This document shows, piece after piece, positions 11,498 to 24,508 of a DNA stretch of 64,000 nt; within the stretch, counting starts at the first letter, position 1, and every line of letters starts with the position of its first letter. This DNA comes from Prauserella alba (GTDB taxonomy: Bacteria > Actinomycetota > Actinomycetes > Mycobacteriales > Pseudonocardiaceae), in the NCBI RefSeq assembly GCF_024171735.1, contig NZ_JAMTCH010000007.1, positions 1 to 64,000 on the forward strand. Direction: 5' to 3'. Under the pieces are notes generated by a model that ran no database searches, was not told where the DNA came from, and saw only the letters and a list, made by a program, of their open reading frames with translations. Made by a program: the position numbers and the translations under genes.

Positions 11498-13126
11498 ATG
11501 GCCGAGGCGAAGTTGTCCGGCGTGGGCGTCAGCCCCGGCCGCGCGAGCGGCCCGGTCGTACGGGTCACCGACACCATCGAGGAGCCGGCGAGCACGCCGG
11601 GACCGGACGATCCGTACGCCGAGTCCGCGCTGATCGGCCCGGCGGCCGAGAAGGTGGCCGCCCGGCTCGAAACGATGGCTTCCGCCGCGACCGGCGACGC
11701 CGCCGCGATCCTCACCACCACGGCGGCGATGGCCGCCGACCCGTCGCTCGTCAGCCAGGCCGAGCAGCTCGTCACCGCACAGCGCATCCCCGCGGCCCGT
11801 GCCGTCTACGAGGCCGCCGGACACTTCGCGCAGGCACTGGCCAACGCGGGCGGCTACATGGCCGAACGGGTCCGCGACGTCCACGACGTGCGTGACCGCA
11901 TCATCGCCGAGGTCCTCGGCATCGCACCGCCCGGCGTTCCGGAGCTGACCACGCCGAGTGTGCTCGTCGCCCGCGACCTGGCCCCCGCGGACACGGCCGG
12001 GCTCGACCCGGCGAAGGTGCTCGCGCTCGTCACCGAGGAGGGCGGGCCGACGAGCCACACGGCGATCCTCGCGCGGTCGATCGGCATCCCGGCGATCGTG
12101 GCGGTGCGGGGCGCGTTGACGTTCGGCGCCGAAGCCGTCGTGGTCGACGGCGACGCGGGCACCGTCGAGGCGGCCGACCCGGCGGCACCGGTCGTCACGG
12201 CGACCGCGGGCGGAGCCGCCGAGTGGAACGGCAAGGGCGAGACCTCCGACGGTCACCCGGTCAAGGTGCTGGCCAACGTGGGCGCACCCACCGATGCGCG
12301 CGCCGCCGCCGACGCGGGCGCCGAAGGTGTCGGCCTGTTCCGCACCGAGTTCTGCTACCTCGACGCCGACGACGAACCCGGCGTCGACGAACAGCGCTCG
12401 GCTTACGCCGCTGTCCTCGAGCCGTTCCGCGGCAAGCCCGTCATCGTGCGCACCCTCGACGCGGGTGCCGACAAGCCGTTGGCGTTCCTCGCGCCGGAGG
12501 CGGAGCCGAATCCGGCGCTCGGCGTCCGCGGGGTGCGCGTGGCGTTCGACCGGCCCGGCGTGCTCGATCGGCAGCTCGAGGCCATTGCGGGCGCCACCGC
12601 CGACTCCGGCGCAGACGTCGCGGTGATGGCCCCGATGGTCGCGACCGCAGACGAGGCGGCGTGGTTCGCCGAGCGAGCGCGTGCGGCCGGGATCGCGCGG
12701 GCAGGCGTGATGATCGAGGTGCCCGCTGCCGCGCTGAGCGCCCGCGAGGTGCTGGAAGCCGTTGACTTCGTGTCCGTCGGCACCAACGACCTCGCCCAGT
12801 ACACGTTCGCCGCCGACCGGCAGCTCGGTGCGGTCGCCACGCTCAACGACCCGTGGCAGCCCGCGTTGCTGCGGCTCATCGGCATGGTCGGCGACGCGGC
12901 CAGGGTGACGGGCAAACCAGCGGGCGTGTGCGGCGAGGCGGCAGCCGACCCGGGACTCGCCAGGGTGCTGGCAGGCCTCGGCGTGACGAGCCTGTCGATG
13001 AACGCCGCGTCGGTCCGCGCCGTCGGCGCCGCGCTCGCCTGCGTGACGTTGGCCGAGTGCGAACGTGCCGCGGAGCAGGCGCTGGCCGCGCCGAATGCGC
13101 AGGCGGCCCGCACGGCGACGAAGTAG
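11498..13126 (+). CDS. ptsI: Phosphoenolpyruvate--protein phosphotransferase (PTS enzyme I)
   Basis: First enzyme of the PTS, moving phosphate from PEP to HPr; cytoplasmic, 542 residues. The phosphorylated histidine is in GGPTSHTAILAR near residue 187. PEP-binding residues appear in GLFRTEFCYL and the C-terminal GVCGEAAADP contains the catalytic cysteine near 477. Slightly shorter than the 575 residues of the enteric enzyme, as usual in actinobacteria. A GGGAGGA ribosome site lies 9 nt before ATG 11498. No HPr or EII gene is next to it, so its partners must be elsewhere. Co-transcribed with the ribokinase gene (inference from 31-bp spacing). Confidence 0.95.
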   Translation: MAEAKLSGVGVSPGRASGPVVRVTDTIEEPASTPGPDDPYAESALIGPAAEKVAARLETMASAATGDAAAILTTTAAMAADPSLVSQAEQLVTAQRIPAARAVYEAAGHFAQALANAGGYMAERVRDVHDVRDRIIAEVLGIAPPGVPELTTPSVLVARDLAPADTAGLDPAKVLALVTEEGGPTSHTAILARSIGIPAIVAVRGALTFGAEAVVVDGDAGTVEAADPAAPVVTATAGGAAEWNGKGETSDGHPVKVLANVGAPTDARAAADAGAEGVGLFRTEFCYLDADDEPGVDEQRSAYAAVLEPFRGKPVIVRTLDAGADKPLAFLAPEAEPNPALGVRGVRVAFDRPGVLDRQLEAIAGATADSGADVAVMAPMVATADEAAWFAERARAAGIARAGVMIEVPAAALSAREVLEAVDFVSVGTNDLAQYTFAADRQLGAVATLNDPWQPALLRLIGMVGDAARVTGKPAGVCGEAAADPGLARVLAGLGVTSLSMNAASVRAVGAALACVTLAECERAAEQALAAPNAQAARTATK

Positions 13127-13184
13127 GCACGCGGCTTCCGCCGCCGCGTCCGCCGGGGAGCCGTGGTCGTTCGGCGGGGTCCGA

Positions 13185-14009
13185 TCAGGCGAGCCAGCTG
13201 CGGCGCGGGTGCCGCACCGTCATCGAACCGCCGACGACCCGGCCCGTCACCACGATCCGCGGCGTGCCCGCGGTGCGGGTCGAGTCGGTCTTGTCGGTGA
13301 GCGTCGACCACTTCAGCTCGTCGATCCCGTTCAGGTCCACGGACGCCTGCTCGGGCACGATCAGATTCACCGAACCCCACTTCGTGTCGAGCTCGACGTG
13401 CACGGAACCGCTGGTGAACTCCGCCGACGAGAAGTCGAGCTTGGTCTCGCCGTACTTGTTGCGCACCAGAATCTCGGGTGGCACCCGCCAGCGTCCGCGC
13501 CGCACCAGCGTGCTGCCGACGCCCTTGATCTCCACGCGCCTGCCCGAGGTGGGCCGGTCGGCCCACGGGTCGTCCGGCTGTCCGGCGGTCCAGACCGGGC
13601 CCGCCGCTCCGGCAGCGGGCACGGCGTCCTCGTGCCGTAGCCCGGGCAGGTCGACCAGCACCGAGTTGAGTTCACCCCGGGTGCGCGCCCCGAGCGCGGT
13701 GTCGGCGCGCTCCGAGAACTCGTCCAGGTCCAGCATGCCGTGACCGATCGCGCGCTGGAGCAACTCGACGACGTGTTCCCGCTCGGCATCGGACACCCGC
13801 AGGTTCCGCAACCGCTCCCGTTCGGTCGCGCCGGGAACCGTCTCGGATGCCGTGCCCGCAGGCTCGGCCGACCCCGCCGTGCCTGCGGTGTCCGCTGTGC
13901 CTGCGGTGTCCTCCGGGCCGGGAGTCTCGGCGGGGCCCGGCGTCCCGGCCGGCTGCTCGCCGGTGTTCGCGTCGCCGGCGGACGTCGCGTCGCTGGAGTA
14001 CTCAGTCAC
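13185..14009 (-). CDS. DUF1707 domain protein with LiaF-like C-terminal domain
   Basis: About 274 residues from GTG 14009. The first 75 residues are low-complexity (repeats of TAGTADTAGTAG type). Residues about 80-135 (LRNLRVSDAEREHVVELLQR, GHGMLDLDEFSERADTALGA, TRGELNSVLVDLP) form the DUF1707/SHOCT-like helical module. The C-terminal part (KGVGSTLVRRGRWRVP, then WGSVNLIVPE) looks like the beta-solenoid of cell-wall-sensing LiaF proteins. Membrane segments are absent, so it is probably cytoplasmic. It lies upstream of nothing obvious on its strand, but follows the two-component system below it in the same direction, 88 bp away. Confidence 0.7.
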   Translation of the reverse strand: MTEYSSDATSAGDANTGEQPAGTPGPAETPGPEDTAGTADTAGTAGSAEPAGTASETVPGATERERLRNLRVSDAEREHVVELLQRAIGHGMLDLDEFSERADTALGARTRGELNSVLVDLPGLRHEDAVPAAGAAGPVWTAGQPDDPWADRPTSGRRVEIKGVGSTLVRRGRWRVPPEILVRNKYGETKLDFSSAEFTSGSVHVELDTKWGSVNLIVPEQASVDLNGIDELKWSTLTDKTDSTRTAGTPRIVVTGRVVGGSMTVRHPRRSWLA

Positions 14010-14097
14010 ACCGAGAACGGTACGACCGTGAGCCGCGCACCGGATCCGGGAAACCCCTGAGAACCGCCCCCGAACCACACCGGAATCTCCCGGAGGG

Positions 14098-14751
14098 TCA
14101 CTCCTGCTCCTGGTCGAGGCCGTGCTCGATGGCGTAGCGGGCGAGCTCGACCCGATTGTGCAACTGGAGCTTCCGCAACGTCGACTGCACGTGGTTCTCC
14201 ACGGTGCGGTGCGAGATGACCAGGCGGTCGGCGATCTGCCGCGCCGTCAGGCCCTTCGCGACGAACCGCAACACGTCCTGTTCGCGCTGCGTCAACTGCG
14301 GTGGCGGGTCGCCGCCGCTCGGGGTCTCGGCCATCCGCCGGTACTCGCCGAGCACCATCCCCGCCAGGCCGGCCGTGAACACCGGGTCGCCGTCGGCCGT
14401 CCGGCGCACGGCATCGACCAGCTCGGTTACGGACGCCGACTTGACGAGGTAGCCCGAAGCGCCCGCCTTCACCGCTTCCAGCACGTCGGCGTGTTCACCG
14501 CTGGCCGACAGCACGAGCACCCTCGTGTCGGCCAGTTGCCCGGTGATCGCCCTGATCGCGTCCACGCCGGACTGTTCGCCGAGGTTGAGGTCCATCAGCA
14601 CGACGTCGGGGGTGACCGTGGTCGCCACCCGCACGGCCGAGTCGACGTCAGCCGCCGTGGCGCGCACGTCGAAGCCGTGCTCGCCCAGGTCTCGCGCGAC
14701 CCCGTCCCGCCACATCGGATGGTCGTCGACGATCATCACCGACACCGTCAT
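14098..14751 (-). CDS. NarL/LuxR-type response regulator (MacR-like)
   Basis: A 217-residue two-domain regulator. The receiver domain has acidic pair DD at 9-10, phospho-acceptor D54 in VLMDLNLG and the conserved K in YLVKSA. The C-terminal LuxR HTH reads LTQREQDVLRFVAKGLTARQ, IADRLVISHRTVENHVQSTL. It is the partner of the kinase gene that overlaps it by 4 bp (stop of kinase in ATGA). By gene pair and kinase type it resembles the MacRS system, which in Streptomyces affects morphology and antibiotic production; this is family inference. The start ATG 14751 fits the conserved VSVMIVDDHPM. Confidence 0.88.
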   Translation of the reverse strand: MTVSVMIVDDHPMWRDGVARDLGEHGFDVRATAADVDSAVRVATTVTPDVVLMDLNLGEQSGVDAIRAITGQLADTRVLVLSASGEHADVLEAVKAGASGYLVKSASVTELVDAVRRTADGDPVFTAGLAGMVLGEYRRMAETPSGGDPPPQLTQREQDVLRFVAKGLTARQIADRLVISHRTVENHVQSTLRKLQLHNRVELARYAIEHGLDQEQE

Positions 14752-15902
14752 CGGGTGGTCCTCCTCAGGTCGACCGGTCGTGGCAGGTGCATTTCCCACT
14801 CGGTTCCCGCACCGGGTGCGGTGTCGAGCCGGGCCGTCCCGCCCAGTTCGGCGAGGCGACCCCTGATGGACTGGGCAACGCCGATGTGCCCCTCCTCGGC
14901 CGCCGCTTCGAGCCGGCCCTCGGGAATGCCGGGGCCGTCGTCGCGGACCGTCAGTACGATCTCGTCGGTCAGCTCTTCGAGCAACACCCACGCCTTCGCA
15001 CCTTCGCCCGCGTGCTTGTCGACGTTGGAGAGGGCCTCCTTCACGGCGGTCAGCAGTTCGTCGACGGTGTCGGCGGGCAGCCGTACCTCGGACGCGGGGC
15101 CGGAAACCTGCACCCGCGAGGTCGCCAGTACGCCGAGCGCGGCGCGCAGGTCGGCGTTGCCGTCGCTCGGGCCGAGGGGCTCGGAGGTCACGAGAGCCCG
15201 GAGTGCGATCTCCTGTTCACCCGCCTGCTTGGCGAGTTCCGCGGCTTCGCCGCCGAGTTCTGCCCCGCGCCTGCGCACCCGCGCGAGCACCTGCAGCACG
15301 CTGTCGTGGATGGAGCGCGCGAGGCGTTCGCGTTCGGCGGTGGCTGCCTCGGCCCGGAGCGCGCGGGAGACGACGGCCTGTGACCGTCGCGCGGTCGTCG
15401 CGGCCATGCCGACGATCGTGCCGCTGGCCAACAGCAGGAGTCCGTCGCGTGCGACGTCGAGGTCGAACTTCCAGCGGGCCACGCCGGTGGACACGGCGAC
15501 GATCAGCCCGCCGATCGCCCCGCCGACGGCACCGAACCGCGACCCGGCCGTCAGCGGCGCGACGGACGCCCACACCGTCGTCAGCAGCGGCGCGGTGATG
15601 GCGAACTGGTACTCCGACAGCGCCAGCGGCGAGAGAAGCATGATGCCGCACGTCACGACCACGTCCGCCACGACGAGGCCCGCGTAGCGGGTGCGCACGC
15701 GCACGAATGCCGCCGTCGTCACGATCGACCACACGACCATCGCAGCCCACGCGCCCCACGCCAGTGCGAGGTTGCGGTACTCGTCGAAGTGGACGATCAC
15801 CGCACCCAGTGCGAACGCCAGCGTCATCCATCGGAGCACGATGGTTCCCCACCACAGTGGGGTGATCGGATCGAGCAGGTTCGGTTTGGATGCGGTCGTC
15901 AT
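14748..15902 (-). CDS. MacS-family sensor histidine kinase
   Basis: A 384-residue membrane kinase. The N-terminus LLDPITPLWWGTIVLRW is typical of MacS-type kinases, followed by five or six membrane segments up to about residue 165. The dimerisation/phospho-acceptor helix has RLARSIHDSVLQVLARVRRR with the H of the HisKA_3 group. The ATPase part has TAVKEALSNVDKHA (N box), VRDDGPGIP (G1) and GHIGVAQSIRGRLAELGG (G2). It senses an unknown membrane signal with little or no extracellular domain. Transcribed first in an operon with the response regulator. Confidence 0.88.
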   Translation of the reverse strand: MTTASKPNLLDPITPLWWGTIVLRWMTLAFALGAVIVHFDEYRNLALAWGAWAAMVVWSIVTTAAFVRVRTRYAGLVVADVVVTCGIMLLSPLALSEYQFAITAPLLTTVWASVAPLTAGSRFGAVGGAIGGLIVAVSTGVARWKFDLDVARDGLLLLASGTIVGMAATTARRSQAVVSRALRAEAATAERERLARSIHDSVLQVLARVRRRGAELGGEAAELAKQAGEQEIALRALVTSEPLGPSDGNADLRAALGVLATSRVQVSGPASEVRLPADTVDELLTAVKEALSNVDKHAGEGAKAWVLLEELTDEIVLTVRDDGPGIPEGRLEAAAEEGHIGVAQSIRGRLAELGGTARLDTAPGAGTEWEMHLPRPVDLRRTTR

Positions 15903-15915
15903 CGGGGCCGCCAGG

Positions 15916-17205
15916 CTACTCCTCGGATCTGTCTGATTCGCCGGTCGTCACCGTAGTGTCGGAGTTCGTAGTGCCGGGATCCGCGTCCCGGGATGCGGCA
16001 TCCGTGTCGTCGTGGTCCGGACCGTCGGGGTCGGACTCGGATCCGGCCGCATCGGTTCCGGCTCCGGAATCACCGTCACGTTCGGCGTCCTCGCCGTGGA
16101 CCAGCGATTGGATGCCGGCGTTCAGCACGGCGAGCAGCGGCACCGCCAGCAGTGCCCCCGGGATGCCGGCCACGGTGAGGCCGACGGTGATCGCGAGGAC
16201 GACGGCCAGCGGGTGCAGCTGCACCGAACGGCCGAGCAGCAGCGGCTGCAGGACGTTGCCTTCGACCTGCATGACGCCGACCACGATGGCCAGCACGATG
16301 ACCGCGGCGAGGAAGCCGTTGGTCACCAGCGCCACGAGTACCGCGACGGCACCGGTGACGACGGCGCCGATGATGGGGACGAACGCGCCGAGGAAGATCA
16401 GGGTGGACAGCGGCACCACGAGGGGGACGCCGATGATCCACAGGCCGATGCCGATGAGGACGGCGTCCACGACGGCCACCGCGGCGGTGGCGCGCACGTA
16501 GTTGATCAGCGACGTGAACGACCTGCGACCCGCGAGGTCGACGCGGTCGCGCACGTTGCGGGGCACACCGCGGATGAGGAACGTCCAGATCTGGTTTCCG
16601 CTGGTCAAGAAGAAGATCAGGATGAAGAGCGTCAGCAGGAACCCGGTGAGGAACGTGCCGATGGTGCCCGCCGTGGTCAGTGCGCTGGAGGTGACCGCCG
16701 CCTGGTTCTCCTGGATGAACCCGATGCCGTTGTTGATGGCGTCCTGGATCTGGGTCTGTTGCAGGTGCAGTGGCCCGTTGATGAGCCAGTCCTCGATCTG
16801 TTCGAGGCTCTGCGAGACCTGTTGCTGCAGCGCGGGCAGTCCGTCGGTGAACTGGATGATGACGAACGTCAGCAGCCCGCCGACGACGCCGAGTCCCCCG
16901 ATCAGCACGATCACGGCCGACACCGGTTGCGGCAGGCCGATCCGCGTCAGCCGGTGCACCGCCGGGATCAGCAGTGCGGCGAGCAGCAGCGCCACCGACA
17001 ACGGGATCACGACGACGGGCAGGTAGCCGACGACCTCCCCGACGACGTACAGCGCGGCGACGATGACCAGGAATCGCCACGACAGCGCCGCGGCGATGCG
17101 GAAGCCCTTCGGTACCGATCGTGCGACGTCGGCGTCGAGGGAGCTGGCGTGGGGTGCGGGATCGGGGGTGGGGCTCCCGGTCGTCCGGGCCGTGTCGTCG
17201 TCCAC
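15916..17205 (-). CDS. AI-2E family transporter (PerM-type permease)
   Basis: About 429 residues from GTG 17205, with seven to eight membrane segments between residues 35 and 370. The middle amphipathic segment (DGLPALQQQVSQSLEQIEDW) and the C-terminal VEGNVLQPLLLGRSVQLHPL are hallmarks of the AI-2E/PerM family. Members export or transport quorum signal AI-2 or act in Na+/H+ exchange; the substrate here is unknown. The last 65 residues are Asp/Ser/Thr-rich and probably cytoplasmic and disordered. It lies 14 bp upstream of the kinase start on the same strand, so it may be co-transcribed with the two-component genes. Confidence 0.85.
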   Translation of the reverse strand: MDDDTARTTGSPTPDPAPHASSLDADVARSVPKGFRIAAALSWRFLVIVAALYVVGEVVGYLPVVVIPLSVALLLAALLIPAVHRLTRIGLPQPVSAVIVLIGGLGVVGGLLTFVIIQFTDGLPALQQQVSQSLEQIEDWLINGPLHLQQTQIQDAINNGIGFIQENQAAVTSSALTTAGTIGTFLTGFLLTLFILIFFLTSGNQIWTFLIRGVPRNVRDRVDLAGRRSFTSLINYVRATAAVAVVDAVLIGIGLWIIGVPLVVPLSTLIFLGAFVPIIGAVVTGAVAVLVALVTNGFLAAVIVLAIVVGVMQVEGNVLQPLLLGRSVQLHPLAVVLAITVGLTVAGIPGALLAVPLLAVLNAGIQSLVHGEDAERDGDSGAGTDAAGSESDPDGPDHDDTDAASRDADPGTTNSDTTVTTGESDRSEE

Positions 17206-17533
17206 GGGACAACCGTATCGAGATCGACGTCGCCGTGTGCGGTGAGTCGATCTACGGGCGGTGGCTACTACGCCGAGTGATGCGTTGCCACGGCGCGTAA
17301 TTTTCACACCTTCGTGCCATCAAGTCGCGCGGGACGTGATTTCCGGGTCTCGCGTTTGCCATTCTCGTCGGCACGTGGGTGAAACCCGCCCGGGAATTCA
17401 TTTTCCGATTCTTCTTCATGTTCTGCAGTGCCCGAGGGCGGGCGCCGGCAGGACCGAGGCTTGTACAGGGCCGTGCGCGCAGTGGTGTTTCGAACGCCGA
17501 GCCGTGCGGGTTCGAGATTCGCGAGGAGTGTGC
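17206..17533. other. Intergenic region upstream of secreted-protein gene
   Basis: No gene is supported in these 328 bp between two divergent genes. The middle (about 17295-17420) is noticeably AT-richer than the surroundings, with TTTTCACACC and CATTTTCCGATTCTTCTTC stretches, as expected of a promoter or 5' untranslated region for the gene at 17534. Confidence 0.4.
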
Positions 17534-18898
17534 GTGGCAGCGACGACCCCGACACCGGACGCCCGGCGCGTCCGTCGGTGGTTGGCGCGCGCGCTCGCCG
17601 TCTCCGGAGGTGCGGCGGCCGCTACCGCGATCGCGTGGGGCGTCGGCACGACGTCCGCCTCCGCGGTCGAGAACCCGCTCGACAACGTCGGCGACGCCAA
17701 GCCGGCGGCCGACGTCCCGTTCGCCTCCGGGTCCGGGGACACGCGGTCCCCCGACTCCCACTCCCCCGGCTCCCACTCCGCGGAGACCCGGGCTGCGGGC
17801 GAGCAGTCCGGCGCGCGGCATGCGCAGTCGTCGGACGGTGGTTCCGACCACGGCGACGCCTCGGGTAGGGGCGAGTCCACCGGAGCCGGTGCGGGGTCGC
17901 CCGACACCGCGTCGGGCCGGCACGTCACGGATCGTGCGAACGCCGAGGGGCTCGCCGCGTGCGACCACGCCCCCGGTCCCTCCGACGTACGCGGCCTGTT
18001 CGACGACGCGCACACCGACCGCTTCGACATCGCTCGCTTCGCCGACCGCGGCCGTGAGCTCTCCGGCCGCGAGCTGTCCGGTGCCGAACTGCCGGGTGAC
18101 GCCGCGGAGTCCGTGGCGGCTGCCGAGTCCGTGGACTCCGCGCACGGCACCGATTCCGAGAGCGCACCCTGCCCGGATTCCGGTGCCGATCGCCCGGACG
18201 GTGCCGACGCGCCGGACGCCGCAGAGCAGACCGAGCAGTCCGGCGCTGCCGACGGTTCCGATGCCGCGCGGCAGCACGTCGAGCAGACCTGGTCACACGT
18301 CACCGGCCGGACTCGCGACGCGGTCCACGGCTTCGGTGACGCGCTGCGCACCGTGGCCGACGACTGGTCCGGCGACCGTTCGCCGGACTGGAACGGCTGG
18401 CCCGACGTCGAGCTGCCGTGGTCCGGCTTCGCGCCCGATCCCGGCGACCTGCCGTCGCCGAACGACGTGCCGTGGGGTTCCGGTGGCCCGGATCTGCCCG
18501 AAGGCGCCGCCCAGACTTCGCCGCACGACGCCGACGCCCGCGCTCCGGGCGACGAGCGGCACGACGCCGTGACGTCCACTTCGGACCGCGGCAACCATGA
18601 GACGTCCGGTGTCCTCGACACCGGTCACGACGGCGCGAGCACCGAAAGTGCCGCCGTCGACACCGACTCCGGAGAGCCGACGACGCCGTCGTTCCCGGAG
18701 TTCGACCCGCAGTACGTGCCGGCCTCCGTGCCGTCGCACTCGTCGATCGCCGGCAGCGCGCACGCCGATGCGCCGTCCGGCGCCGTCATCACCACGGCCG
18801 CACCGTTCGCCGTGGCCGCCGCGGGTGCCGTCCGGCGCTCCGGCCTGCTGCACAAGTCGATGTCGCCGGGTTCGCAGCCCGGTGTGACGCCCGACTGA
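17534..18898 (+). CDS. Secreted Ser/Asp-rich protein, unknown function
   Basis: Not recognised. A 454-residue protein beginning with a twin-arginine-flanked signal peptide (RRVRRWLARALAVSGGAAAA, cleavage after SASA near residue 48). The mature part is acidic, low in hydrophobics and rich in Ser, Asp, Gly and Pro, with little repeat order except GRELSGRELSGAELPGDAAE-like units near 175-190. A short hydrophobic patch, AVITTAAPFAVAAAGAVRRS, lies near the C-terminus, possibly a weak anchor. GTG 17534 is chosen because GAGGAG lies 7 nt upstream. It is followed in the same direction by the chaplin-like repeat protein, so both may build or decorate the cell surface (inference). Confidence 0.6.
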   Translation: MAATTPTPDARRVRRWLARALAVSGGAAAATAIAWGVGTTSASAVENPLDNVGDAKPAADVPFASGSGDTRSPDSHSPGSHSAETRAAGEQSGARHAQSSDGGSDHGDASGRGESTGAGAGSPDTASGRHVTDRANAEGLAACDHAPGPSDVRGLFDDAHTDRFDIARFADRGRELSGRELSGAELPGDAAESVAAAESVDSAHGTDSESAPCPDSGADRPDGADAPDAAEQTEQSGAADGSDAARQHVEQTWSHVTGRTRDAVHGFGDALRTVADDWSGDRSPDWNGWPDVELPWSGFAPDPGDLPSPNDVPWGSGGPDLPEGAAQTSPHDADARAPGDERHDAVTSTSDRGNHETSGVLDTGHDGASTESAAVDTDSGEPTTPSFPEFDPQYVPASVPSHSSIAGSAHADAPSGAVITTAAPFAVAAAGAVRRSGLLHKSMSPGSQPGVTPD

Positions 18899-19099
18899 TC
18901 ACTTCCGCGGGGTAGCCGGCGCGCCCCTGCGGATTTCCGTTTTTCCGCTTTTATTTCTCCGCGCCGGCTTTTCCTTTCCCCGCATTTCCCGCGACGCGCC
19001 GTTCGGCGCGCTCGCCATCCGCCTCATGTCCCCGCGCGTCCGGCGGAGCGCAGATATGCCCTCTCAACAGGGAACCTAGGAAAAGGAGAACACCACATA

Positions 19100-22000
19100 A
19101 TGCAGACCTGGGCGAAGCGCGGATTGCAGACCGCGCTGGTGACCGGTGGCATGATGATGCTGGGCACCGGCATCGCTTCCGCAGACGAGAACGTCGACCC
19201 GGATTCCCCCGCCGGTCCGCTCGATGCTGGCGTCAGCGTTCCCGTTCAGATCGAGGACAACGCGGTCGGCACGCCGATGGGGCAGCACAACCTGCCCGGT
19301 GTCGACAGGGAGCTCAGCACCAAGCCCGTCACGGACAAGGTGAACGAGGCGGCCGCTCCGGCCATGGAGAAGGCCAAGCCCGTGTCCGACAAGGTGAACG
19401 AGGCCGCCGCGCCGGTGTCCGAGCGGCTGCAGTCCGCGGCCGACCGCGGCAGCGCGGCGATGACCCAGACGGGCCCGCACACCGAGAAGGCGGCTCCGAG
19501 CGTGGAATCGCCGGTCACCAAGGCGACCGAGGCCGGCTCCGACCGTCTCCCCGGGCCGGTTTCCGATTCCGTTCCGCAGACCGGGCAGGTCACGGACACG
19601 CTCACGCAGCAGGTCGGCAATGCCGACGCACGCCAGGTGCCCGAGCCGGGCAACGACCCGTTCATGGGCAACAAGGTCGACACCAACATCGCGCTGCCGA
19701 TCCAGATCACGGGCAACGCGGTGGGCATCCTCGGTGACGCCGAGGTGCACTCGGACTCCGAGCAGTCCTACGAGCACAACTCCGACGTCAGCACCGACGG
19801 CTCCTCCGGCGGGCTCGCGGGCAACGTCGTGGCCCTCGATTGGGCGGCGCCGGTGCAGATCTCCGGCAACGCCGGCAGCCTGGGCGGCTCGGGCAAGACC
19901 TCGGGCAGCGCCTCGCAGGACGCCACCACCACGGGCGACGTGGACACCGACGGCAGCAACGGCGCAGGCGCGGGCAACATCGTGTCGCCGCAGGGCGCCA
20001 CCCCGGTGCAGGTGTCGGGCAACGCCATCGCGTGGTTCCTCGGCCACTCCGAGACCGACTTCGACCCCAGCAGCTCCGCCGAGAGCGGCGGTTACCTCGC
20101 CACCAACGGTGAGGGCGGCTCCATCGCGGGCAACGTGGTGGGCGCGCCGGTCGCACTGCCCGTGCGGGTCGCGAACAACGCGGCCACGTGGGGCGGCGAC
20201 GCCGACGCCTCCGGTTCGTCGATGGTCGACGCCGCCGCCGGTGACGACACGTCGCCCGGCATGCACGACATCGACAGCTTCATCCAGACGGAGGGCGAGA
20301 ACGGCTTCGCATCCGGCACGATCGCCCAGCCGCAGGTCGCGTCGCTGGCCTCGGTGACGGGTGTCGCGGGTTCGTGGATCGGCAACGCGGCGACCGGTAC
20401 CGCGGGCGACCGCCAGACCGGCGGCACGGCGTCCGACGCCACGATGACCGCCGGCGGTCCCTCCAACACCAACGGCAACGAGGCAGCGGGCTCGGGCAAC
20501 ATCGCCGACGCTCCGGTGGCGCTGCCGGTGGAGATCTTCGGTGTCGGCGGCACGTGGATCGGTAACGCGCACGCCCAGGACCACGTCAACAGCACCGAGG
20601 CCACGGCGGGCGGTGACACGCTGACGCCGGGCGACGAGTCGGTCCTGTCCTCCAACACCGCGTCGCCGGCGATCGCGTCGGCCGCCGAGGTGTTCGGCGT
20701 GGGCGGTTCGTGGATCGGCAACGCCTCGGGCAGCGCCGAGTCCGACAAGCTCGTCGAGGCGGGTGGCTACAACGGCACGCTCGCCAACGAGTCCTCCGGT
20801 TCGGGCAACCTGGTGCAGGTGCCGCTGGCCACGCCGGTCGAGGTCTTCGGCGTCGGCGGCAGCTGGATCGGCCAGGGTGCCGGCGAGGCCGAGGAGACCA
20901 AGGAGGTCATCGCCGGCGGTGGCGGCAGCACCATCGACGACTACGGCTTCGCGAACGCCAACCTCGTGCAGGCGCCGGTGGCGCTGCCCGCGCAGGTCTT
21001 CGGTGTCGGCGGCAGCTGGATCGGCAACGGCTTCGGCGAGGGCGAGGGTGACACGATCACCGAGGCCGGCGGCGACGCGACGGCAGCGGGCGACAAGGGC
21101 ACGGCGGCCGGCAACATCGGCTTCGTGCCGGTGTCGCTGCCCGCGCAGGTGCACGGGATCGGCGGCAGCTGGATCGGCAACGGCCACGGCACCAGCAGCA
21201 ACCTGACCGACTCGATGGCGGGCGGCGACGCCACGACGTCGGGTGAGCAGGGCTCCATCGCTGGCAACCTGGTCGAGGTTCCGGCCGGTGGCGCGGCGTC
21301 GGTGTTCGGCAACGGCGCGAACTGGATCGGCACCGCGTCGGGCACCGGCGTGAACGACGTCGTGTCCGAGGCAGGCGGCGACTCGGAGACCGTCGGTGAC
21401 GGCGGTTCGATCGCGGGCAACATCGTCAGCGCCGACGCGATGCCGATCGTGTCGGCCTTCGGCAACGCGGCCAGCCTGACCGGTGTCGCGAACGGTGCGG
21501 GCGCGAACTTCGTGGACGTCACGTCCGGTGGCGACAAGGAGACGTCCGGCATGGGCGGCGCGATCTCCGGCTCGATCATCGACGTGCCGCTGACCGCAGT
21601 GGCGCAGCTGTTCGGCAACGCAGCCACGGCCGGCGGCGTCGCGAACGCCATCGGCGACAACACGACGGTCGGCGAGTCCAGCGGCACCACCACGACGGCC
21701 GGTGACCCGCAGTCGCTGTCCGGTGTGGACGTGCAGCGTCCGATCGGCGTCGTCGCGCAGGTGTACGACGTGCCGCTCGAGCTGCTCGGCCAGGCGACCA
21801 CCCTGGCCAACAACGACACGGACCTGACGGTCGCCGACGCGCCGATCGACCCGATCATCGGCAAGGAGATCAGCGGCTCGGAGCTGCCCGCGACGGGCAT
21901 GCCGAACACGCCGTACTTCGCCGCGCTGGCCAACCGGGCGCCGGAGCTGGCCTCGGCGTCCCCGATGCAGCGTTCGGCGACGCCGGCCGCGATGCCGTCG

Positions 22001-22459
22001 GCCCCGGGGGTGCCCGCCGTGCCGGGCCTGCCGGGCGCGGGTGACCTGCCCGCCGGCGACCTGCCGGTCGGTGAGCTGCCCGCCGGCGACCTGCCGGTCG
22101 GTGAGCTGCCCGCCGGCGACCTGCCCGCCGGTGAGCTTCCGGTCGACGGCCTGCTGCCGGAGCTGTCCGGTGCGGCGGCTCCGGAGCTGCCCGCGATGCC
22201 GGCCCAGCGTTCGGACGTGCCGCAGCTGCCCGCCGACCCGACGCAGGGTGAGTTCGCGGGTGCGCTGGACGGCGTCTCGCTGAACGGTGTCGAGCTGGGC
22301 GGCACGGACATGCGTGCCGCGGAGATGCCCGCCACGCCGGCCCTGCCGGGCGCGGGCGAGCTGCCGACGGCCGGTGACCTGCCGGTCGAGGCCGACATGA
22401 TGAAGGGTGCCGCCGAGCAGGTGTCCTTCAACGGCTACGGCCTGGGTGCGTTCGTCTGA
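19100..22459 (+). CDS. Giant secreted protein with chaplin-like repeats
   Basis: A 1,119-residue exported protein; signal peptide 1-28 ends at IASA. Residues 74-112 hold a duplicated 19-residue helix (KPVTDKVNEAAAPAM, then KPVSDKVNEAAAPVS). Residues about 190-900 are some fourteen repeats of about 51 residues following GNxVxxPxxxPVxVxGVGGSWIGxxxG and an Asp/Gly/Thr-rich tail ending AGGDxxxxG. The core resembles the chaplin domain (SGNxVxVPxxxPVxxxGN) that coats Streptomyces aerial hyphae, but the two chaplin cysteines are missing. Residues about 980-1015 are a (G[DE]LP[AV]) repeat. An AAAAGGAG ribosome site precedes ATG 19100. No C-terminal sorting signal or membrane anchor is seen, so it is probably released or self-assembling. 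Confidence 0.7.
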   Translation: MQTWAKRGLQTALVTGGMMMLGTGIASADENVDPDSPAGPLDAGVSVPVQIEDNAVGTPMGQHNLPGVDRELSTKPVTDKVNEAAAPAMEKAKPVSDKVNEAAAPVSERLQSAADRGSAAMTQTGPHTEKAAPSVESPVTKATEAGSDRLPGPVSDSVPQTGQVTDTLTQQVGNADARQVPEPGNDPFMGNKVDTNIALPIQITGNAVGILGDAEVHSDSEQSYEHNSDVSTDGSSGGLAGNVVALDWAAPVQISGNAGSLGGSGKTSGSASQDATTTGDVDTDGSNGAGAGNIVSPQGATPVQVSGNAIAWFLGHSETDFDPSSSAESGGYLATNGEGGSIAGNVVGAPVALPVRVANNAATWGGDADASGSSMVDAAAGDDTSPGMHDIDSFIQTEGENGFASGTIAQPQVASLASVTGVAGSWIGNAATGTAGDRQTGGTASDATMTAGGPSNTNGNEAAGSGNIADAPVALPVEIFGVGGTWIGNAHAQDHVNSTEATAGGDTLTPGDESVLSSNTASPAIASAAEVFGVGGSWIGNASGSAESDKLVEAGGYNGTLANESSGSGNLVQVPLATPVEVFGVGGSWIGQGAGEAEETKEVIAGGGGSTIDDYGFANANLVQAPVALPAQVFGVGGSWIGNGFGEGEGDTITEAGGDATAAGDKGTAAGNIGFVPVSLPAQVHGIGGSWIGNGHGTSSNLTDSMAGGDATTSGEQGSIAGNLVEVPAGGAASVFGNGANWIGTASGTGVNDVVSEAGGDSETVGDGGSIAGNIVSADAMPIVSAFGNAASLTGVANGAGANFVDVTSGGDKETSGMGGAISGSIIDVPLTAVAQLFGNAATAGGVANAIGDNTTVGESSGTTTTAGDPQSLSGVDVQRPIGVVAQVYDVPLELLGQATTLANNDTDLTVADAPIDPIIGKEISGSELPATGMPNTPYFAALANRAPELASASPMQRSATPAAMPSAPGVPAVPGLPGAGDLPAGDLPVGELPAGDLPVGELPAGDLPAGELPVDGLLPELSGAAAPELPAMPAQRSDVPQLPADPTQGEFAGALDGVSLNGVELGGTDMRAAEMPATPALPGAGELPTAGDLPVEADMMKGAAEQVSFNGYGLGAFV
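22041..22147 (+). repeat. 30-bp tandem repeat coding a (GDLPV/GELPA) tract
   Basis: About three and a half direct copies of a 30-bp unit containing GACCTGCCGGTCGGTGAGCT, inside the repeat-protein gene. It encodes alternating GDLPA/GDLPV/GELPA pentapeptides. Such arrays change copy number easily, so the length may vary between strains. Confidence 0.75.
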
Positions 22460-22508
22460 GCCGAACCCATCCGCTGCCGGTCCACGTGAGACCGGCCGAG
22501 TGAGATTC

Positions 22509-22544
22509 GCGGGCCCCGGAAGCGATGTCGCTTCCGGGGCCCGC
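22509..22544. terminator. Bidirectional terminator hairpin
   Basis: A perfect 17-bp stem (GCGGGCCCCGGAAGCGA and its complement) separated by 2 nt, between the convergent repeat-protein gene and the dioxygenase gene. No T-tract follows on either side, as is common for actinobacterial terminators. Confidence 0.75.
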
Positions 22545-22576
22545 TGCCGTGTGCGGGGTGGTCGCCGGTGCCGGGA

Positions 22577-23344
22577 TCAGCCGAGCTGGACGGAGCGTTT
22601 CGCGAGGCCGTGCCAGTAGCCGTCGATGACGGTGTCGGGCGTGCGGTCGTCGCCTGCGCCGAGGGAGACGAACAGGGGCGCGAAGTGTTCGGTCCTCGGG
22701 TGAGCGAGCTGGGCCGCGGGTGCCTTGTGCCGGAAGTCGAGGAGCGCGTCGATGTCGCCCGTGGCGAGCGCGCCTGCTCCCCAGTCGTCGAACTCGGCGG
22801 ACCATGCCGGAGGTGTTCCGCCGGAGCCGTCGGTCTGGCGCATCGCGACGAGGTTGTGGGTGAAGAAGCCGCTGCCGATGATCAGCACCCCGCGGTCCAG
22901 CAGCGGGGCGAGGCGGCGGCCGAAGTCGTGGAGTGTGCGCGGGTCGAGGGTCGGCAGGGACACCTGGAGGACGGGTATGTCGGCGCCGGGATACATCTCG
23001 ACGAGGGGCACGTAGGCGCCGTGGTCGAGGCCGCGTGCCGGGTCGTCGTGGACGTTCCCGCCGAGAAGTTTCCGCACGTCGGCGGCGAGATCGGGGGCGC
23101 CGGGCGCCGGGTAGGTGACGTCGTAGTAGCGATCGGGGAAGCCCCAGAAGTCGTACACGAGCGGGACCGTCGTGGTGGCTCCGAGAGTGGCGGGCGCCTC
23201 CTCCCAGTGGGCGGAGACGACGAGGATCGACGTCGGCGTCGGCAGGTCGGCGGCCCAGTCGGCGAGCTGACCGGTCCAGGTGGCGTCGTCGGCGAGCGGC
23301 GGCGCCCCGTGGCTCAGGTACAGCACGGGCATCCGGTCGGTCAT
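22577..23344 (-). CDS. Class III extradiol ring-cleavage dioxygenase (DODA/YgiD-like)
   Basis: Non-haem iron enzyme of the LigB superfamily, 255 residues, similar to 4,5-DOPA dioxygenase. Metal-ligand and active-site histidines are visible in YLSHGAPP (H near residue 13), VVSAHWE (H near 46), LDHGAYVPL (H near 107) and GSGFFTHNL. The C-terminal HFAPLFVSLGAG is also conserved. It opens catechol-type rings with oxygen; the substrate is unknown. GGGAGG lies 4 nt upstream of ATG 23344. A perfect GTTGAA-TT-TTCAAC palindrome at 23376-23389 in the promoter is a likely operator. Single gene, convergent with the repeat protein. Confidence 0.88.
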   Translation of the reverse strand: MTDRMPVLYLSHGAPPLADDATWTGQLADWAADLPTPTSILVVSAHWEEAPATLGATTTVPLVYDFWGFPDRYYDVTYPAPGAPDLAADVRKLLGGNVHDDPARGLDHGAYVPLVEMYPGADIPVLQVSLPTLDPRTLHDFGRRLAPLLDRGVLIIGSGFFTHNLVAMRQTDGSGGTPPAWSAEFDDWGAGALATGDIDALLDFRHKAPAAQLAHPRTEHFAPLFVSLGAGDDRTPDTVIDGYWHGLAKRSVQLG

Positions 23345-23375
23345 GACGCCTCCCTGGGTGGACCACAACAAGAAC

Positions 23376-23389
23376 GTTGAATTTTCAAC
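23376..23389. promoter_or_regulatory. GTTGAA-TT-TTCAAC palindrome upstream of dioxygenase
   Basis: A perfect 6-bp inverted repeat with 2-nt spacer, AT-rich against its surroundings, 32 bp before the dioxygenase start. Position and symmetry suggest an operator for a dimeric repressor; the regulator is not identified. Confidence 0.5.
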
Positions 23390-23489
23390 CACAACCATAC
23401 GCCGCTACCGGGGTTCACGCACAGAGGTGTCCGTCACCGCAGGTCGGATGCGTCCCACGGAGTCGCCGCGCCTGTCATGCTGCGCTGTC

Positions 23490-24434
23490 ATGACAGGCGA
23501 CGCGGATGAGTTCGAACGGCATCGGCCGCTGGTGTTCCGGGTGGCGTACGGGATGCTCGGCTCGGCCGCCGACGCCGAGGACGTACTGCAGGACACGTTC
23601 GTCAGGTGGCACGGCGCGCGGCCGGATACGATCAGGACGCCGTCGGCCTGGCTGGTCAAGGTCGCGACGAACCTCTGCCTGAACCGGCTCACCTCCGCTC
23701 GGGCCCGACATGAGCACTACCCGGGTCCGTGGCTTCCGGAACCGGTGTTGACCGGCGACGGCACCCTCGGCCCGCTGGAATCGGCCGAACAGCGCGAGTT
23801 CGTCTCGCTGGCCTTCCTCGTCCTGCTGGAACGCCTGACCCCCGCCGAACGGGCGGTGTTCGTGCTGCGTGAGGCGTTCGGATACCGCCACGACGAGGTG
23901 GCGGAGGCGCTGGCGGTGTCGGCGGCGAACTCTCGCCAGCTGTATCGCCGCGCCCGGCGACAGGTGGCCGCGGCGCGCGAGGCTTAGGACGGCGAGCGGG
24001 CCGGCGCCGGGGACCGAACGCGGCAGCGCGACCTGGTGGGACGTTTCCTCTTGGCCGCGCGCGAGGGCGATCTCGCCGGATTGGAACGACTGCTGGCGGA
24101 GGACGTCGTCACCTGGGCCGACGGCGGTGGACGTGTCGGCGCAGCGCGTCGTCCCGTGGTGGGCGGCGCGAAGGTGGCGCGGTATCTGCTCGGCGCGCTG
24201 GCGAAGGCGGGCGACGTTCCGGATCTGCTGGTGTCCGAGGTCAACGGTGAGGCGGCGGTGCTGGCCGTACAGGGGCCGAGCGGGCGCGGGCCGGGTCTCG
24301 TCGGTGTGATGGTGCCCGAGGTGGGCGACGGCGTCATCATCGGAATCCGGATCGCCGCGAACCCGGACAAGCTCGGGTTCGCCTCCTTTCAGTTGCTGCG
24401 GCTGTCACATTCCGCGTGGTCGTCCGGTTCGTAA
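23490..24434 (+). pseudogene. ECF41-type RNA polymerase sigma factor (SigJ-like) split by in-frame TAG
   Basis: Codons 1-165 (23490-23987) carry sigma region 2 (FRVAYGMLGSAADAEDVLQD) and region 4 (LTPAERAVFVLREAFGYRHD, then YRRARRQVAAAREA), with the WLPE linker motif. A TAG at 23985-23987 follows. The same frame then continues without another stop to 24434, giving the SnoaL-like extension of ECF41 proteins with the DGGGR motif (TWADGGGRVG) and NPDKL near the end. The piece after TAG could start at GTG 24036 (132 residues). In studied ECF41 factors this extension tunes activity and its removal can raise it. So the split may be a disabling mutation, a natural two-part factor, or a sequencing error. 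Next to it lies an epimerase, the usual ECF41 partner. Confidence 0.7.
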
Positions 24435-24508
24435 GGGGAATACCAGTTGCGCGGGATGCCGTCCGCAGGCGAAGGGCGGTGACGTGCTCCGATCCGAAAG
24501 TGGGGCCG

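What the first reader, a model, noticed from the sequence alone, without database searches (positions are those of the whole stretch)
19100..22459. 1,119-aa chaplin-like repeat protein without cysteines or anchor
About fourteen 51-residue repeats carry the GNxVxxPxxxPVxVxGN pattern typical of chaplins, but chaplins have one to three domains and usually cysteines. A single secreted chain with this many units, plus a helical duplicated N-terminus and a (GDLPV) tail, looks like a fibre- or sheath-forming surface protein of a new architecture. The GVGGSWIGN core may form stacked beta strands.
Basis: partly seen in the sequence, partly recalled or inferred. Interest (0 to 1): 0.72.

Follow-up and report, generated by a model that had tools for sequence, protein, structure and literature searches.

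The report
Giant secreted multi-chaplin repeat protein
A soil actinomycete and many of its relatives encode one very long, apparently secreted protein built from thirteen linked copies of a domain related to the small water-repellent coat proteins of Streptomyces, next to an unknown secreted partner, and this may be how these bacteria coat their filaments without ordinary chaplins.

Summary
The 1,119-aa ORF is coding, cysteine-free and anchorless, with 13 full repeats of about 51 aa plus a degenerate 14th. Profile tests tie the repeats to the chaplin family ChpA-C (PF03777): 36.6 bits against a cut-off of 21; 51 of 59 homologous arrays match. A home-made chaplin HMM finds 43 of 75 proteins against 0 of 825 shuffled or reversed ones, the window itself just missing at E 0.0014; hhalign gives 95%. 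It is not a one-off: 83 of 150 sampled Pseudonocardiaceae genomes match strongly, while one place in 150 scores above 40 bits as a short chaplin. Unit order and 51-aa register are largely kept across genera. A second secreted gene lies about 200 nt upstream; its C-terminal motif QPGxTPD occurs in 71 of 150 family genomes and in none of 196 other class genomes. A MacS morphogenesis kinase is near. Best reading: a single-chain chaplin-type surface coat with a dedicated partner.

The parts
19100..22459 (+). Giant chaplin-domain repeat protein, 1,119 aa
19100..19183 (+). Signal peptide MQTWAKRGLQTALVTGGMMMLGTGIASA (aa 1-28), strongly conserved and shared with otherwise different short proteins
   Evidence: cleavage site judged by eye (AxA), no predictor run. 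The loci were found through peptides of this very stretch, so they do not test its conservation
19184..19297 (+). Conserved N-terminal half-chaplin-like segment (aa 29-66, ...GVSVPVQIEDNAVGTP...)
   Evidence: likeness to a chaplin half-unit by eye
19298..19666 (+). Variable linker with a duplicated 18-residue K/A/E-rich stretch (aa 67-189)
19667..21721 (+). Thirteen chaplin-like repeats (aa 190-874); in each an apolar core of about 27 aa, then an acidic Gly/Asp/Thr-rich stretch
21722..21814 (+). Degenerate 14th repeat (aa 875-905)
21815..22456 (+). Variable Pro/Leu-rich tail (aa 906-1119) without anchor; tandem GDLPV/GELPA at 22036-22154
17534..18898 (+). Predicted secreted partner protein, 454 aa (GTG start, signal peptide ...RRWLARALAVSGGAAAATAIAWGVGTTSASA), no Pfam or NCBIfam match
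18866..18895 (+). C-terminal decapeptide PGSQPGVTPD of the partner, conserved in relatives
17280..17400 (+). Region corresponding to a block (TTCACACGAT, then CATCAAGTCGTG) conserved upstream of the partner in relatives; diverged in the window
15916..17307 (-). AI-2E family transporter, divergent neighbour; found in 76 of 80 loci
14748..15902 (-). MacS family sensor histidine kinase (NF047322, 450.8 bits, cut-off 300); found in 65 of 80 loci
14098..14751 (-). Response regulator of 217 aa beside MacS, so MacR-like by position; found in 60 of 80 loci
   Evidence: not run against a family library
22577..23398 (-). LigB-domain dioxygenase downstream; found in 54 of 80 loci

Best explanation
The gene encodes a Sec-secreted, non-anchored structural coat protein made of 13 chaplin-type (ChpA-C) units fused in one chain. 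Each unit alternates an apolar chaplin core (GNxVxxPxxxPxxVFGxGGSWIG) with an acidic, Gly/Asp/Thr-rich stretch, so the chain is a long amphipathic, probably beta-rich ribbon expected to self-associate laterally on the hyphal or spore surface: a pre-assembled chaplin layer in one polypeptide, held by interaction rather than by sortase or disulfides. A second secreted protein from the gene just upstream, with a conserved C-terminal PGxQPGVTPD tail, is the likely dedicated partner (docking, nucleation or wall tethering). Shown: coding, conservation, similarity to ChpA-C beyond composition, array register, absence of anchor and Cys, conserved two-gene neighbourhood near macS. Inferred: export (signal peptides by eye or by pattern), surface coat, beta structure, self-assembly, partnership, developmental control.
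For: PF03777 at 4.1e-9 for the protein and 1.2e-12 for the array; 51 of 59 homologous arrays match at E<=1e-3. HMM from 31 chaplin domains fetched outside the family: 43 of 75 proteins at E<=1e-3 against 0 of 750 shuffles and 0 of 75 reversed. Repeat profile against chaplin profile: probability 94.8, E 5.5e-8 over 35 columns; reversed controls 1.3. Cys pairs in relatives at V-x-V-C-G-N-like places. Unit core GRAVY 0.51 against 0.60 in chaplin domains, remainder -0.56 with net charge -2 to -7. Best-matching unit has the same array position in 104 of 156 tests, 12 expected. Units 7-12 are 51 aa in 67 to 73 of 74 rows. Strong array match in 83 of 150 family genomes; one place above 40 bits as a short chaplin in the same 150. 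Partner candidate in 73 of 74 loci examined. MacS near it; a review says that MacR directly targets membrane and lipoproteins that seem to act in aerial mycelium development (PMC9739842, passages).
Against: No structure, expression or localisation data. The window itself misses the 1e-3 line with the home-made HMM (E 0.0014, 14.6 bits, bias correction 78.9 bits), and single units reach at most 13 bits. No unit has the third GN motif or a cysteine. The protein is strongly acidic (27 K+R against 129 D+E in the mature chain, pI at the calculator's floor of 4.05), unlike water-repellent short chaplins. A window unit scores higher with its positional partner than with its best paralogue in the window in only 60 of 156 tests. 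39 of 150 family genomes have only a weak match and 28 none; one weak genome has a contig length that I recall as that of Saccharopolyspora erythraea, which makes aerial hyphae, so the array is not needed for aerial growth throughout the family. The macS/AI-2E linkage may be old synteny without functional meaning, and the review calls MacRS a negative regulator of differentiation. The recalled MacR site is absent from the window.
Confidence: 0.58

Rival explanations
1. It is a chaplin-derived adhesin or extracellular-matrix fibre used for attachment and pellet or biofilm cohesion in substrate mycelium, not a coat of aerial hyphae.
For: Strongly acidic overall; no anchor; not universal in the family; PMC4255298 (passages) notes that some chaplins serve attachment, a role that may predate aerial growth.
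Against: Adhesin repeat arrays often vary in copy number and homogenise (recalled); here unit order and spacing are largely kept across genera. A MacS-type kinase near it hints at morphogenesis.
Confidence: 0.26
2. An acidic, possibly metal-binding S-layer-like or cell-wall matrix protein: the GGDxxTxGDxGS stretches bind cations and the chaplin-like core is only packing.
For: Strong negative charge in the second part of each unit; largely fixed register.
Against: No calcium-binding family was reported by Pfam; the profile match to chaplins lies in the core, not in the acidic stretch.
Confidence: 0.1
3. Convergence: a generic Gly/Ala/Val-rich beta-repeat protein that scores against ChpA-C by composition.
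For: Low single-unit scores and a large bias correction for the window; L105 is below the Pfam cut-off (18.6 bits), and L103 also matches the low-complexity GLTT repeat model PF01744, with a better E-value than ChpA-C.
Against: 0 of 825 shuffled or reversed controls reach what 43 of 75 real proteins reach; reversed-profile controls fail; Cys pairs fall on chaplin-like positions; ChpA-C is the only family listed for the arrays; an anchored relative, L022, carries 10 clear chaplin stretches behind a related signal peptide.
Confidence: 0.05

Closest known systems
Long chaplins ChpA-C of Streptomyces (PF03777)
   Same: Secreted; chaplin units; apolar core with GN motifs
   Different: Two domains, Cys pairs (with an exception in ChpB) and a C-terminal sortase signal (PMC13251363 and PMC5618241, passages) against 13 units, no Cys, no anchor
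Short chaplins ChpD-H
   Same: Secreted, no sortase signal, chaplin domain
   Different: One domain in about 55 aa (PMC5618241, passages); here about 1,090 mature aa with an acidic stretch after every core
   Same: 10 PF03777 stretches, spacing 52-64 aa, similar signal peptide, GGN-V-AP-V core
   Different: Cys pairs, Pro/Thr linker and LPVTG plus membrane segment
CwpA/CwpB of Actinoplanes missouriensis
   Same: Hydrophobic surface proteins outside Streptomyces that the authors liken to long chaplins (PMC13251363, passages)
   Different: The authors conclude that they have no chaplin domains; sortase-anchored
Rodlins and SapB
   Same: Partners or analogues of chaplins on aerial hyphae (PMC4255298, passages)
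   Different: No direct comparison made here; the partner protein matches no Pfam or NCBIfam model

Membership tests
ChpA-C sequence family (PF03777) | Whole-protein score above the Pfam gathering cut-off | tested here: met
   36.6 bits against 21; array alone 47.9 bits
ChpA-C sequence family (PF03777) | Single stretch significant in a whole-genome search | tested here: not met
   Own genome: no match at E<=0.001; single stretches of relatives do pass, up to 38 bits
Chaplin in the strict sense | Three GN motifs per domain | tested here: not met
   First GN in 9 of 13 units, second in 6 of 13, third in 0 of 13
Chaplin in the strict sense | Two cysteines per domain | tested here: not met
   0 Cys in the window; pairs in some units of many relatives
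Chaplin in the strict sense | One or two domains, about 55-225 aa | tested here: not met
   13 units, 1,119 aa
Long chaplin | C-terminal sortase signal with membrane segment | tested here: not met
   0 of 74 relatives have KD19 above 1.6 in the last 60 aa; window maximum 1.37, inside the array
Chaplin in the strict sense | Highly hydrophobic domain | tested here: inconclusive
   Core close to chaplins, whole unit not
Chaplin in the strict sense | Amyloid assembly, surface activity, presence on aerial hyphae | not testable with these tools
   Needs protein and microscopy
MacS (for the neighbour gene) | NCBIfam equivalog cut-off | tested here: met
   450.8 bits against 300

The most novel reading that the evidence does not exclude
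Pseudonocardiaceae replaced the multi-protein chaplin layer of Streptomyces by a two-protein system: one ordered single-chain array of 13 non-equivalent chaplin units (a built-in rodlet of fixed length) and a secreted partner whose conserved C-terminal PGxQPGVTPD tail docks, nucleates or tethers it, the pair being under MacRS-type developmental control.
Probability: 0.32. Interest if true: 0.8.

Novelty: new variant of a known kind. Interest (0 to 1): 0.62.

Why it matters
A 2013 survey of about 100 actinobacterial genomes names chaplin-like proteins in a few genera, none of them Pseudonocardiaceae, although a figure of it includes Saccharomonospora, Saccharopolyspora, Amycolatopsis and Actinosynnema (PMC4255298, passages). 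How the mycelial Pseudonocardiaceae, which include major antibiotic producers (recalled), coat their hyphae therefore looks open. This locus is a concrete candidate that can be tested by deletion, and a single chain with fixed unit order offers a tractable way to study how chaplin domains pack. The partner's family-specific tail is a separate, testable sorting or docking signal.

Tried and rejected
Sortase anchoring by LPATG (929-933): rejected, mid-chain, no membrane segment. Three of 74 relatives with LPxTG in the last 60 aa likewise lack a membrane segment there.

Relatives in the PDB: none convincing for the protein (best E 0.59), none for the array profile, none convincing for a chaplin domain (best E 0.92). 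NCBIfam: none for this protein, the partner and three relatives. Rfam over 13000-24500: one hit, below the family's threshold.

MacR site: the consensus was recalled from memory and gave no match in the window with up to 3 mismatches; the source paper is not held. Inverted repeats with 7-bp arms shared by the promoter regions: none in more than 2 of 71. A possible MtrA-type direct repeat in the conserved block was seen by eye and is not claimed.

The tblastn count for the partner (4 of 80) used a wrong reading frame and is discarded; the right frame finds it by similarity in 14 of 80 loci, and one search finds it by position and signal-peptide pattern.

Full report
WHAT IS THERE. ORF 19100-22459 (+) encodes 1,119 aa behind a good ribosome-binding site. 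Codon-position GC (0.685/0.558/0.931) and Ka/Ks of 0.20-0.51 against five relatives titled Prauserella show a real gene under purifying selection. The first 66 residues and the array are the most constrained; linker and tail the least. The antisense 703-aa ORF mirrors the GC pattern and is taken as spurious. The window lies in a 5.6-Mb genome whose nearest named relatives by this protein are Prauserella species; the genus is inferred from that.

ARCHITECTURE. Signal peptide (aa 1-28, by eye), a conserved half-chaplin-like segment (29-66), a variable linker with the duplicated helical-looking stretch (67-189), 13 repeats (190-874), a degenerate 14th (875-905), and a Pro/Leu-rich tail with the GDLPV tandem. 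Autocorrelation passes the threshold at lags 51 and 102 only. Each unit has an apolar core of about 27 aa (mean GRAVY 0.51; chaplin domains 0.60 over the same length) and an acidic remainder (mean -0.56, net charge -2 to -7). There is no cysteine and no C-terminal membrane segment; 0 of 74 relatives have such a segment in their last 60 aa. In 46 of 74 relatives a 19-residue stretch beyond residue 40 does exceed KD 1.6, in 42 of them within the first 88% of the chain.

IS IT CHAPLIN-RELATED? Yes, by four tests. (1) Pfam: PF03777 at 36.6 bits (cut-off 21) for the protein and 47.9 for the array; 51 of 59 arrays of alignment A2 match at E<=1e-3, best 6.6e-26. A2 holds 59 of the 75 sequences then in hand. 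(2) An HMM built from 31 chaplin domains, taken by motif from 20 loci outside the family, finds 43 of 75 proteins at E<=1e-3, against 0 of 750 shuffles and 0 of 75 reversed sequences. The window protein is not one of the 43: E 0.0014, 14.6 bits after a bias correction of 78.9. (3) Profile-profile comparison gives probability 94.8 and E 5.5e-8 over 35 columns; the two reversed controls give 1.3 and E 0.04. (4) Cysteines of relatives often form pairs 11-17 residues apart, mostly in units 6, 4, 1 and 7. In the ten relatives whose contexts I printed, most pairs start at V-x-V-C-G-N-like places, as in chaplins; a few cysteines lie elsewhere. Also against: single units in the window reach at most 13 bits, PF03777 finds nothing at E<=0.001 in the own genome when scored stretch by stretch, L105 stays below the Pfam cut-off, and L103 matches the low-complexity model GLTT better than ChpA-C.

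A LARGELY FIXED ARRAY. The named-genome scan found 191 relatives and kept the best 80, each titled with a genus that I know as Pseudonocardiaceae or with the family name. The scan worked through two peptides of the signal sequence, so it sees only copies that have it and says nothing on its conservation; the whole-protein search is independent of that. My start-motif filter gave proteins for 74 of 80 (dropped: L044, L057, L058, L079, L097, L102); in L060 it took a neighbouring second copy. With the frame-broken L041 set aside, units 7-12 measure 51 aa in 67, 73, 73, 67, 72 and 73 of 74 rows; of the 19 departures 10 are whole extra units (102-103), 7 are one residue longer and 2 are ten longer. 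Units 1-5 and 13 vary more. For 12 divergent homologues that I chose out of 73, the best match of each window unit is the unit at the same position in 104 of 156 cases (12 expected by chance). But the positional partner outscores the best paralogous unit of the window protein in only 60 of 156. I read this as unit order predating these genera.

DISTRIBUTION. Alignment A1 matches 122 of 150 sampled family genomes: 83 with best E below 1e-50, 39 weaker (counted from the table). Eight of the 39 have E between 1e-23 and 1e-31 and may hold part of an array; I did not read them. The weak ones that I read (L019, L020, L021, L023, L024) are proteins of 418-484 aa sharing just the signal peptide and a few following residues. 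PF03777 alone matches 54 of the same 150 genomes. Only one place is above 40 bits (G266, 76.4 bits, 87-aa frame); most others lie in frames of about 1,000 aa, and eight weaker places (22-33 bits) lie in frames of 62-526 aa and were not examined as possible chaplins. In the class sample 39 of 197 genomes match, all 15 of the family f33 among them, with up to 106 bits. In the order sample 53 of 200 match; outside the own family these are partial matches in shorter frames. One, L022, has 10 PF03777 stretches at 223 bits, Cys pairs, an LPVTG anchor and a similar signal peptide: a plausible link between anchored chaplins and this protein.

THE PARTNER AND THE LOCUS. Just upstream, 17534-18898 (+) encodes a 454-aa protein with a signal peptide. 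A scan for an ORF with a signal-peptide-like pattern ending 20-450 nt before the array gene finds a candidate in 73 of 74 loci, window included (L109 could not be examined, L086 had none); 71 of 73 end 125-248 nt before it. Of the 73, 72 end in PD and 64 fit PG.[QR]PG.[TNAS]PD; the exception is L054. The DNA pattern for QPGxTPD-stop occurs once in the own genome, in 71 of 150 family genomes with 0 in the backward control, and in 1 of 197 class genomes, that one being the own genome, with 1 control match. Of 73 places I took the 64 in genomes with a strong array match: 58 lie within 700 nt of an array match. Of the six exceptions four are about 0.4 Mb away, one is on another contig and one 2.5 kb away. 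By tblastn the partner is recognisable in only 14 of 80 loci, so the tail and signal peptide are its conserved parts. Within the 6-kb flanks the AI-2E gene is found in 76 of 80 loci, the kinase in 65, LigB in 54 and the response regulator in 60. The kinase is MacS by the NCBIfam equivalog model. Two reviews (passages only) say that MacRS of S. [quoted passage not shown]

HOW IT MOST LIKELY WORKS. Shown: coding, repeat register, similarity to chaplins, no anchor, conserved neighbours. Inferred: Sec export; a beta-rich amphipathic ribbon; lateral association into a surface layer; help from the partner; developmental control. Anchored long chaplins plus many short ones would here be replaced by one chain whose 13 units differ and keep their order, as if each place in the layer were specified.

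WHAT IS KNOWN. Chaplins: one or two domains, three GN motifs, two cysteines, long forms sortase-anchored (PMC13251363, PMC5618241, passages). The 2013 survey lists chaplin-like proteins in Stackebrandtia, Thermobifida, Streptosporangium, Nocardiopsis and Arthrobacter beyond streptomycetes, Kitasatospora and Catenulispora (PMC4255298, passages). Searches for chaplin with Pseudonocardiaceae (2 papers, 2 listed), with Amycolatopsis (18, 15 listed), with Saccharopolyspora and hydrophobic (13, 10 listed), for chaplin domain with repeats (2), and for PF03777, ChpA-C, DUF320 or chaplin-like (25) listed no paper whose title or abstract start points to such a protein. Only openly licensed PMC papers were searched. 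So: by sequence in the ChpA-C family, not a chaplin in the strict sense, and a new variant of a known kind.

Noticed in passing
L019, L020, L021, L023, L024: Proteins of 418-484 aa in other genera share the MxxWAKRG signal peptide but show no array match; in G018, G016 and G007 they lie 0.2-1.9 kb from a QPGxTPD-stop site. The signal peptide may be a targeting tag of its own.
   Followed up: partly
L022:505-2544 (-): A 680-aa protein with 10 chaplin stretches, Cys pairs, Pro/Thr linker and LPVTG anchor in another family of the order.
   Followed up: partly
window 17280-17400, and upstream of the partner in relatives: TCACACGAT lies within 2.6 kb before the array gene in 62 of 74 relatives, inside a longer conserved block of unknown regulator; diverged in the window. 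No chance expectation was computed.
   Followed up: partly
G012 contigs C2 and C19; L060; L075, L079 and L104 (one genome by accession): Several genomes carry two or three array genes, in G012 two on one contig a few kb apart.
   Followed up: no
L041 / L007 / L030 (Saccharomonospora sp. CUA-673): The array is broken into two reading frames; sequencing error or pseudogene, left as it is.
   Followed up: no
G266:C10:42589-42717 (L132): The only place above 40 bits for PF03777 in 150 sampled family genomes, an 87-aa frame, in a genome that also has the giant array.
   Followed up: no
L128 (ORF on minus strand, 399 aa) and L136 (514-aa frame): L128 is a chaplin-domain protein with four to five units, Cys and an LPVTG anchor in another family of the class; L136, in the own family, has a Cys-bearing chaplin stretch of 33 bits.
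   Followed up: no
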